Source of the DNA: an uncultured Verrucomicrobiales bacterium
Lineage (GTDB): Bacteria; Verrucomicrobiota; Verrucomicrobiia; Verrucomicrobiales; Akkermansiaceae
Direction: 5' to 3'
DNA length: 64,000 nt
Assembly: GCA_937928425.1 (NCBI GenBank)
Contig: CALFVL010000052.1
Span: 1 to 64,000, forward strand
The position numbers and the translations under genes are program-made. Numbering within the stretch: position 1 is the first letter of the stretch; each line of letters starts with the position of its first letter. Of this stretch, positions 16,192 to 48,511 are shown piece by piece. The notes under the pieces were generated by a model that had not been told where the DNA came from, did no database searches, and saw nothing but the letters and a program-made list of their open reading frames with translations.

Positions 16192-17103
16192 TTATCGCTG
16201 ATTAGGAATCGTCAAGGAAGCACCAATTTTCAAAGCATTCACATTAACGTGGGGATTCGCCCGTTTCAGAGCATCCACACTCACTCCATGATTGGTCGCG
16301 ATTCTCCAGAGAGTCTCGCCCGAGCGGACGATATGACTCCGCCCCGTGGCCACGACTTGTGGACGTGGCTGAGGTGCGGGACGGCGAATGATCTCACGAC
16401 GTGGAGGAGGACTCTGCACACTGGGTCTACGCGGCTTTATCAAAATCGCACTCCGAGTTGGCTCCGGCTCAAGGCCCTCCACTGGAGCTAACTCCCCGGG
16501 GCGTTTGCCAGGATAAGTCTCACTCTCAGACTGAATGAGAGGGCGAGCTTGGTGACCATAGCTCTGTTGGCGATATGCTGGCTGCTGAGGATAAGCAGTC
16601 TGTGGACGAGGCTGCTGCTCCACGTAAGCGAGGCCACGCTCAACTGGCTGCACTTCTTCTGTGCGGCGGTTCGGCACGTTAATGATCCAGCCGGGTTCCA
16701 GAACTTTCCCCTCATTCACCTTCATCAGCATTTCACAATCGACTCCGTATCTACGGGCGATTTTTTCGTAATCATCGCCTGAGGTCACGGTGTGAGGCTT
16801 AAGCTCGGCGAGGCGAGTGGGCGGGGTGTTTTTTACCAAAGCAGGCACCTTGGCCTCGATATCAGCACCCTCGCTCCAGCGATTGTGAAGGTAAATTCCC
16901 GCAATTGCAGCGACATGGAGAAGAAGAATCACAAGGAGTGCACGGGCGATTCCCACGCCGGGAACCTCGTTAAACTCATCATGAGCCGCAGCAGTGGAAG
17001 CACGTTGTTTACGCTTTTTGCCAAAGCGGGTGGCAGCATGCAGGATACGGTAGCTCGCTTTCGGGCGAACTCTTTTCGTCTGGATGGTTTTTGGTGTTTT
17101 CAT
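16192..17103 (-). CDS. LysM-repeat membrane protein in the dcw cluster
   Basis: HTVTSGDDYEKIARRYGVDCEMLMKVN and HIVRSGETLWRIATNHGVSVDALKRANPHVNVNALKIGASLTIP. Confidence 0.88.
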   Translation of the reverse strand: MKTPKTIQTKRVRPKASYRILHAATRFGKKRKQRASTAAAHDEFNEVPGVGIARALLVILLLHVAAIAGIYLHNRWSEGADIEAKVPALVKNTPPTRLAELKPHTVTSGDDYEKIARRYGVDCEMLMKVNEGKVLEPGWIINVPNRRTEEVQPVERGLAYVEQQPRPQTAYPQQPAYRQQSYGHQARPLIQSESETYPGKRPGELAPVEGLEPEPTRSAILIKPRRPSVQSPPPRREIIRRPAPQPRPQVVATGRSHIVRSGETLWRIATNHGVSVDALKRANPHVNVNALKIGASLTIPNQR

Positions 17104-46817: not shown

Positions 46818-48322
46818 TCACCGTCACCGTCATCGCAATCTATCTCAGTCTTCTCTTAGGACTCGCGCTTTTTTCCAAAACCCTCTTCCGTGGCACCTCG
46901 AAGGATTACTTCGTTGCCAGTCACTCTATTGGCCCCTTTATGCTCCTCATGTCGGTCTTTGGGACCACCATGACTGCCTTCGCCCTCGTCGGCTCCACTG
47001 GGAAAGCCTTCGGCACGGGTATCGGAACCTATGGCTTAATGGCCTCATCTTCTGGCCTCATTCACGCCGCCTGCTTCCTCATGATTGGCATCAAGCTCTG
47101 GGCTATCGGGAAACGCTATGGCTACGTCACGCAGATCCAGTACTTCCGTGCCCGCTTCGACTCTAAGGCCTTCGGCTACCTCCTCTTTCCCATCCTCGTC
47201 CTCCTCGTTATCCCCTACCTTCTCATCGGCATCATCGGGGCCGCTAAAACGATCGAGGGAGTGACTATGGCTAAAGGACCTCATCCTGGAGTCTTCCCAG
47301 AATGGACTACGAATGGAGCCATCCCCCCTTGGTTCACCGGGCTCGTCATCTCCATCGTCGTCCTCACCTACATCTTTGCCGGAGGTTCACGGGCCGCCGC
47401 TTGGGCCAATACTTTCCAAACCATCGTCTTCATGATCATGGGGATTCTCGCCTTCTACCTCATCTCAGATAAACTCGGAGGAGTTGGAGCTGCCATGGAA
47501 CAGGCCAAAGACACTCATAAGGTCCGCAGCGTCGAGGGGAAAGCCGGAGTCTCACAGCTCACCTTCCTCACCTACATGTTCATTCCTCTGAGCGTAGGCA
47601 TGTTTCCACATCTTTTTCAGCACTGGCTCACCGCCAAAAGTGCGAAGAGCTTCAAACTCACCGTCATCGCTCACCCCATTTGCATCGCCATCGTCTGGGT
47701 CCCCTGCGTCCTCATCGGCATCTGGGCCACAGGGCAACTCCCTACTGGGACGAACCCCTCAGCCATTCTTTCCATCATGGTGGCTAAACTCGTCGCAGAT
47801 CCCCTCATCGTAGGTCTCGTTACGGCTGGGATCCTCGCTGCGATCATGTCCTCACTCGACTCCCAATTCCTCTGTCTAGGCACCATGTTCACCAACGACA
47901 TCATCCTCCACGGCAGCAAAAAACAATATGGGGATAAGCAAATCCTCCTCATGGCTCGCGGATTCATCGTCGCCATCGTCATCATCATCTACCTCATCTC
48001 ACTCATCCTCCTTCAGCAGCCCAAGCAGCACATCTTCTCCCTCGCCGTATGGAGTTTCTCCGGATTTGCCGCGCTTACCCCACTCGTAATCGCCGCCCTC
48101 TACTGGAAACGTGCCACTAAAATCGGTGCCTATGCCTGTGTAATCACCGTCTTTATCAGCTGGGTCACCTTCTTTACCTTATCCGGATTCGGTGGCGAAT
48201 TCCACGTCTTAGGGGGCATCACCCCTGCTGCGATCATGTGGTTTCTAGGCGCCGGAGCCATGATCACCGGCTCACTCGCCTCCCCAGTACCCAGTGAGAA
48301 AACCATCGCTAAATTCTTTTAG
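46814..48322 (+). CDS. Sodium:solute symporter (SSS family)
   Basis: GTG start overlaps the upstream TGA (GTGA). GGSRAAAWANTFQTIVFMIMG, ILAAIMSSLDSQFLCLGTMFTNDI. Confidence 0.9.
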   Translation: MITVTVIAIYLSLLLGLALFSKTLFRGTSKDYFVASHSIGPFMLLMSVFGTTMTAFALVGSTGKAFGTGIGTYGLMASSSGLIHAACFLMIGIKLWAIGKRYGYVTQIQYFRARFDSKAFGYLLFPILVLLVIPYLLIGIIGAAKTIEGVTMAKGPHPGVFPEWTTNGAIPPWFTGLVISIVVLTYIFAGGSRAAAWANTFQTIVFMIMGILAFYLISDKLGGVGAAMEQAKDTHKVRSVEGKAGVSQLTFLTYMFIPLSVGMFPHLFQHWLTAKSAKSFKLTVIAHPICIAIVWVPCVLIGIWATGQLPTGTNPSAILSIMVAKLVADPLIVGLVTAGILAAIMSSLDSQFLCLGTMFTNDIILHGSKKQYGDKQILLMARGFIVAIVIIIYLISLILLQQPKQHIFSLAVWSFSGFAALTPLVIAALYWKRATKIGAYACVITVFISWVTFFTLSGFGGEFHVLGGITPAAIMWFLGAGAMITGSLASPVPSEKTIAKFF

Positions 48323-48370
48323 AAAAAAATCATAAAACTTCGAACGAATCATCAACTCGGGAGTCTATTA

Positions 48371-48511
48371 ATGCGAAACCAGCGATTAAACGCCAGTTTT
48401 CATATAGGGTGAACAGCTTAATTGCCTCGTTTCCACGAGTGTGGAGCTTCGAGAAGCAATGTTCTTTTAACCGCCGGAATTTTCTCAGGAAAGTTCCGGC
48501 GGTTTTCTTTT
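48371..48511 (+). ncRNA. Structured RNA candidate ending in an intrinsic terminator, upstream of pheT
   Basis: Extended hairpin 48411-48464: GAAC..ATTGC-CTCG-tt-TCCAC-GAGT-GTGGA-gctt-CGAG-aa-GCAAT-GTTC; then CCGCCGGAA-N14-TTCCGGCGG-TTTTCTTTT (48471-48511). Confidence 0.55.

What the first reader, a model, noticed from the sequence alone, without database searches (positions are those of the whole stretch)
48371..48511. Unidentified structured RNA ending in a terminator, upstream of pheT
A long, interrupted hairpin (GAAC / ATTGC / CTCG / TCCAC-GAGT-GTGGA / CGAG / GCAAT / GTTC) is followed 6 nt later by a 9-bp CCGCCGGAA/TTCCGGCGG terminator. A GAAACC-GCG-ATTAAA-CGC-AGTTTTC stem precedes it. It starts about 50 nt after the symporter stop and ends 130 nt before pheT. 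It could be a free sRNA, or a leader that controls pheT, which here lacks an adjacent pheS.
Basis: partly seen in the sequence, partly recalled or inferred. Interest (0 to 1): 0.6.

Follow-up and report, generated by a model that had tools for sequence, protein, structure and literature searches.

The report
Multicopy small RNA with dedicated promoter
The structure is a real, free-standing small-RNA gene of about 137 nucleotides, one of five copies of a family not in the RNA database searched, present in about 80 genomes of one bacterial family (Roseibacillus, Luteolibacter and Haloferula relatives), apparently read from a stress-type promoter and probably acting by pairing with other RNAs rather than by controlling its neighbour pheT.

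Summary
The hairpin, the terminator and the preceding stem are all present, and they belong to a stand-alone sRNA gene, not a pheT leader. The assembly has five copies: this one, three in tandem on contig C129, and a divergent one on C21. Relatives occur in about 80 genomes and 8 genera of one family (Roseibacillus/Luteolibacter/Haloferula), often 2-6 per genome. Copies share one plan: an A-tract, a promoter TTYGAAC-N17-GTC (55 of 59 copies found by core sequence alone; 0.035 expected by chance), a first hairpin, a near-invariant unpaired core (CAURUA(A)GGGUGAACAGC), a second hairpin and a strong terminator (95 of 99). The helices covary. The downstream gene is co-directional in only 48 of 84 copies, and the pheT-linked copy exists in only three species. 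The promoter resembles ECF sigma (sigma-E type) promoters; the cognate sigma was not identified. Hfq was not found in 58 relatives. Rfam has no match. A candidate partner is a conserved terminator hairpin, usually upstream of an HtrA-like protease gene: 15-17 nt complementary to the core in most sRNA-bearing genomes, not complementary in five sRNA-less genomes that keep the hairpin. Transcription, sigma factor and target are not shown experimentally.

The parts
48322..48329 (+). A-tract upstream of the -35 element
   Evidence: A-rich at about the same distance in nearly all family copies
48339..48345 (+). -35-like element TTCGAAC
   Evidence: TTYGAAC conserved; GAAC-N17-GTC at 60-70 nt upstream of the core in 55 of 59 copies found by core sequence alone, 0.035 expected
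48363..48366 (+). -10-like element GTCT (GTC invariant)
48371..48511 (+). predicted sRNA transcript, about 137 nt (start inferred from the promoter, end from the terminator)
   Evidence: covariance-model matches in relatives; no RNA-seq available
48375..48401 (+). hairpin 1 (GAAAC/GTTTT outer, GCG/CGC inner)
   Evidence: 97% of cells paired in the 12-sequence alignment; compensatory changes in the 57-sequence type A alignment
48402..48417 (+). near-invariant, mostly unpaired core ATATAGGGTGAACAGC, proposed pairing segment
   Evidence: 15-17 nt complementarity to a partner hairpin
48421..48460 (+). hairpin 2 (ATTGC/GCAAT, CTCG/CGAG, TCCAC-GAGT-GTGGA)
   Evidence: both-side changes in three sub-helices
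48469..48512 (+). intrinsic terminator, 16-bp stem and T-rich tail

Best explanation
It is the gene of a free-standing regulatory small RNA of about 137 nt, one of five copies in this genome. Shown by sequence: a shared dedicated promoter motif, two hairpins flanking a near-invariant single-stranded core, and an intrinsic terminator. Inferred: the promoter is read by an ECF (sigma-E-like) sigma factor, so all copies are induced together by one, probably envelope-related, stress, and the number of copies raises the dose. Inferred: the RNA acts in trans by base pairing through the core, without Hfq. Candidate partner (weaker): the core nucleates on the internal loop UCCUAUA of a conserved terminator hairpin at the 3' end of a membrane-protein gene, usually just upstream of an HtrA-like protease gene, and opens its 5' arm.
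For: Five copies in the own genome at unrelated loci, three of them in tandem. Distribution over 8 genera. Compensatory base changes. Promoter motif in 55 of 59 copies found by core only, 0.035 expected, and almost nowhere else in the own genome: 5 of 7 hits are the five sRNA copies. It has the GAAC...GTC skeleton of sigma-E promoters, given as GGAACTTTT and GTCAAA for micA and rybB (PMC1804206). Terminator in 95 of 99 copies. Downstream gene same strand 48, opposite 36, none called 11. Hfq not found in 58 relatives. Partner hairpin: -22 to -27 kcal/mol with the type B core in eight sRNA-bearing genomes, -11 to -14 in five sRNA-less genomes, background mean -11.2 +/- 2.3; genome-by-genome test with each genome's own core.
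Against: No transcript data. The cognate sigma gene was not found: the one ECF gene beside a copy (L147) has no close counterpart in most sRNA-bearing genomes. The partner evidence follows a few lineages of the genus, so shared ancestry alone could explain it. The partner hairpin is conserved beyond the complementarity and persists without the sRNA. In G003 and G021 the pairing is interrupted, and in G006 the fit is lost with its own type B core. No equivalent partner was found for type A copies (one search gave only sRNA copies and a few unrelated single-mismatch sites).
Confidence: 0.75

Rival explanations
1. It is a cis-acting transcription attenuator or leader of the downstream gene (pheT here, MATE at the other locus).
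For: At the MGMT/MATE locus and here the next gene is on the same strand and close.
Against: Downstream orientation is 48 same to 36 opposite; tandem copies cannot all be leaders; downstream genes are unrelated; pheT-linked only in three species.
Confidence: 0.07
2. It acts by binding a protein, as 6S RNA or CsrB-type RNAs do, with the invariant core and the RRGU-loop hairpin as binding sites, and the copies act by titration.
For: The core is conserved across eight genera more strictly than most antisense seeds; a second conserved hairpin loop (RRGU) recurs.
Against: No Rfam match to 6S or CsrB families; the core has no GGA repeats; 15-17 nt complementarity to a conserved hairpin is present only in sRNA-bearing genomes.
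Confidence: 0.2
3. The shared upstream motif is the site of a transcription factor or of the housekeeping sigma, not of an ECF sigma.
For: The cognate ECF was not found; TTGAAC resembles a -35 box.
Against: The second box is GTC followed by variable bases, without a TANNNT pattern; the GAAC...GTC skeleton at fixed spacing matches the sigma-E pattern.
Confidence: 0.2
4. It is a repetitive or mobile element, such as a REP or MITE, without a regulatory function.
For: Several copies per genome, some in tandem with pieces of neighbouring genes.
Against: Low copy number, one fixed order of promoter, RNA and terminator, covarying helices, and one locus held over a dozen genomes.
Confidence: 0.04

Closest known systems
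sigma-E-dependent sRNAs MicA and RybB of enterobacteria (PMC1804206)
   Same: stand-alone short RNA with a GAAC...GTC type promoter conserved over relatives
   Different: no sequence similarity in Rfam searches; about 137 nt against 70-80 nt; multicopy; phylum without detectable Hfq; targets unknown
FoxI and FoxJ of Fusobacterium nucleatum (PMC11005410)
   Same: sigma-E control of sRNAs in a bacterium lacking Hfq and ProQ
   Different: no sequence relation shown; cytosine-stretch seeds, not the purine-rich core seen here
LhrC family of Listeria (PMC4132741) and FopS family of Bacteroides (PMC11697453)
   Same: multicopy paralogous sRNAs; LhrC is induced by cell-envelope stress
   Different: LhrC is controlled by the LisRK two-component system; Rfam LhrC scored 16 bits against a 110-bit cut-off; FopS is bound by RbpB; no sequence relation found

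Membership tests
sigma-E/ECF-dependent sRNA | promoter with ECF-type -35 (GAAC) and -10 (GTC) at fixed spacing directly upstream | tested here: met
   55 of 59 copies, 0.035 expected; window copy at 48339-48366
sigma-E/ECF-dependent sRNA | expression lost without the ECF sigma factor | not testable with these tools
   needs a deletion strain; cognate sigma not identified
trans-acting base-pairing sRNA | free-standing gene with its own terminator, not tied to one neighbour | tested here: met
trans-acting base-pairing sRNA | conserved unpaired seed complementary to a conserved target | tested here: inconclusive
   partner hairpin complementary in sRNA-bearing genomes only, but confounded by ancestry and not found for type A
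Hfq-dependent sRNA | Hfq encoded in the genome | tested here: not met
   0 of 58 genomes of the order, controls positive
any Rfam family, including 6S and LhrC | score at or above the gathering threshold | tested here: not met
   no hit in the window, chance-level hits only, none in six relatives
pheT leader (T-box or peptide attenuator) | always upstream of a phenylalanine-related gene | tested here: not met
   only three species have it at pheT; no T-box match

The most novel reading that the evidence does not exclude
The sRNA is a trans-acting antiterminator: its core nucleates on the internal loop of a conserved terminator hairpin between a membrane-protein gene and an HtrA-like protease gene, opens the 5' arm and lets transcription read into the protease, so that an ECF sigma factor raises an envelope protease through an RNA in a bacterium without Hfq. 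The reverse direction, with the hairpin as a 3'-end-derived sponge for the sRNA, fits the sequences equally well.
Probability: 0.15. Interest if true: 0.75.

Novelty: new member of a known kind. Interest (0 to 1): 0.58.

Why it matters
Small-RNA regulation in the Verrucomicrobiota is almost undescribed; full-text searches found no sRNA paper centred on the phylum. This family is conserved over eight genera, is present in cultured strains (Haloferula rosea, H. luteola, Luteolibacter marinus, L. pohnpeiensis), has a sharply defined promoter that can be used to find its sigma factor, and offers a testable partner. It would be a handle on RNA-based stress control without Hfq in a large environmental group.

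Tried and rejected
pheT leader or attenuator: rejected. Known Rfam class: rejected. Small protein: an open frame starts in the core (48409), but insertions and deletions right after GGGTG in relatives (GGGTGTAACA, GGGTGAAACA, GGGTAACA) break it. GAAC/GTTC closing pair: not conserved. The ECF sigma gene beside one copy (L147) as the general regulator: no close counterpart in most sRNA-bearing genomes. Exact antisense of the core elsewhere in G000 or G010: none besides the sRNA copies; of the single-mismatch sites only the hairpin extends. HtrA leader as the general partner context: in G020, G021 and G003 the hairpin lies before a RodA/FtsW-like gene instead, so it is tied to the upstream gene. 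The G011 and G012 protease loci have no hairpin. The second model R2 is sequence-only because MAFFT misaligned hairpin 1; it was used for searching only.

Full report
Observation. The described structure is present at the stated place. It folds better than all 200 dinucleotide shuffles, and the terminator is a 16-bp stem with a T-rich tail. The window has no Rfam match at the gathering threshold and no tRNA. A permissive Rfam scan of the region gave only chance-level hits.

A family. A DNA search of 97 related genomes found the element again: in the own genome as three further, tandem copies on contig C129, and in six other genomes of the genus, sometimes as pairs. A covariance model from 12 sequences matched 14 of 27 genomes of the genus, some of them weakly or partially (G008, G009, G012), and 45 of 195 genomes of the family. 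These matches included a divergent type A copy on contig C21 of the own genome (sequence). A scan of about 85,000 species genomes for the core found 60 stretches, all in Verrucomicrobiota, including the isolates Haloferula luteola, H. rosea, Haloferula sp. BvORR071, Luteolibacter marinus and L. pohnpeiensis. An order-wide search with a second, sequence-only model matched 78 of 387 genomes; 77 lie in the window's own family and one weak hit lies outside it. The window is therefore most likely from a Roseibacillus-like member of the Akkermansiaceae (GTDB naming); the species is not known.

Anatomy. Upstream of the core, copies share an A-tract and TTYGAAC-N17-GTC. Among 59 copies found by the core pattern alone, 55 have GAAC-N17-GTC 60-70 nt upstream, against 0.035 expected in shuffled sequence. 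In the whole own genome the motif TTYGAAC-N17-GTCT occurs seven times, five of them at the five sRNA copies. The GAAC/GTC skeleton is that of the sigma-E promoters of micA and rybB, whose motifs are given as GGAACTTTT and GTCAAA (PMC1804206); that ECF promoters in general share it is my own knowledge. The RNA then has hairpin 1 (GAAnnC/GnnTTC), the near-invariant core CATRTA(A)GGGTGAACAGC, hairpin 2, and a terminator found in 95 of 99 copies. Two subtypes exist: type B, as in the window, with an apical CCRY-RRGU-GYGG hairpin, and type A, in which many copies lack that tip.

Covariation. In the 12 type B sequences 97.2% of cells pair, against 34-47% when partners are slid, with 24 both-side changes against 6.3 in shuffles. 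In 57 non-redundant type A sequences both-side changes number 57 against 9.3 +/- 3.4. Relatedness inflates such counts, but the slid controls do not show the excess in paired cells.

Not a leader. Over 95 copies the next called gene downstream is on the same strand in 48, on the opposite strand in 36, and not called in 11 (a crude gene caller). In nine genomes of the genus a copy is flanked by both an MGMT gene and a MATE transporter gene, and in three more by one of the two; the symporter-pheT copy exists only in G000, G010 and G018.

Regulator and chaperone. Hfq is not detectable in 58 genomes of the order, while five of the control genomes give a match. One copy (L147, genome G108) lies just 5' of an ECF sigma gene of the TIGR02989 family, but close relatives of that gene are missing from most sRNA-bearing genomes, so the cognate sigma is open.

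A candidate partner. Antisense matches to the core in G000 and G010 pointed to one place in both: a hairpin with a T-tail between a membrane-protein gene and an HtrA-like protease (trypsin and PDZ domains). Its inner sequence CTGTTCATCCTATACAGGTTCGGGGGTTCCTGTGAGCGTT is identical in six genomes, complete in a seventh but for its last base, and diverged in others. Paired with the sRNA core of the same genome it gives 15-17 bp and about -25 kcal/mol in G000, G010, G015, G018 and G026, better than any of about 4,000 random windows, and weaker values elsewhere; in G006 the fit is lost with its own type B core. In five genomes that keep the hairpin but have no detected sRNA, the loop differs and the duplex energy is near background. 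This pattern suggests an RNA-RNA interaction, but the two states follow lineages, so it is a lead and not proof. The effect on the hairpin (antitermination or sponging) is not decided.

Verdict. A new sRNA family of a known kind. Shown by sequence: family, structure, promoter motif, terminator. Inferred: transcription, ECF control, base pairing. Hypothetical: the partner and its effect. Papers used for comparison: PMC11005410, PMC1804206, PMC11697453, PMC4132741 (abstract); searches for earlier reports of this family found none, with the limit that most subscription papers are not held.

Noticed in passing
L203:1490-1560 (G000:C40, about 16537-16607): A conserved terminator-like hairpin with a near-invariant inner sequence lies 3' of an unknown membrane-protein gene, usually before an HtrA-like protease gene; it has no Rfam match and persists in genomes without the sRNA, so it looks like a conserved RNA element of its own.
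   Followed up: partly
L017:8810-9844: Three sRNA copies in tandem with a period of 424 bp; the repeat unit carries short frames that resemble the end of the neighbouring PQQ-type protein gene and the start of an MGMT gene, and no MATE gene was found on the contig.
   Followed up: partly
L155 and L162 (G138:C1:1690992, G179:C1:4349245): The same promoter motif lies directly before a conserved 158-aa frame (MNLSNFYFPPPAP...) with no sRNA: a possible protein-coding member of the same regulon.
   Followed up: no
L147 (G108:C1:3570789-3571589): An sRNA copy lies just upstream of an ECF sigma gene (TIGR02989); its closest counterparts are in G138 and G179, away from their sRNA copies.
   Followed up: partly
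   Followed up: no
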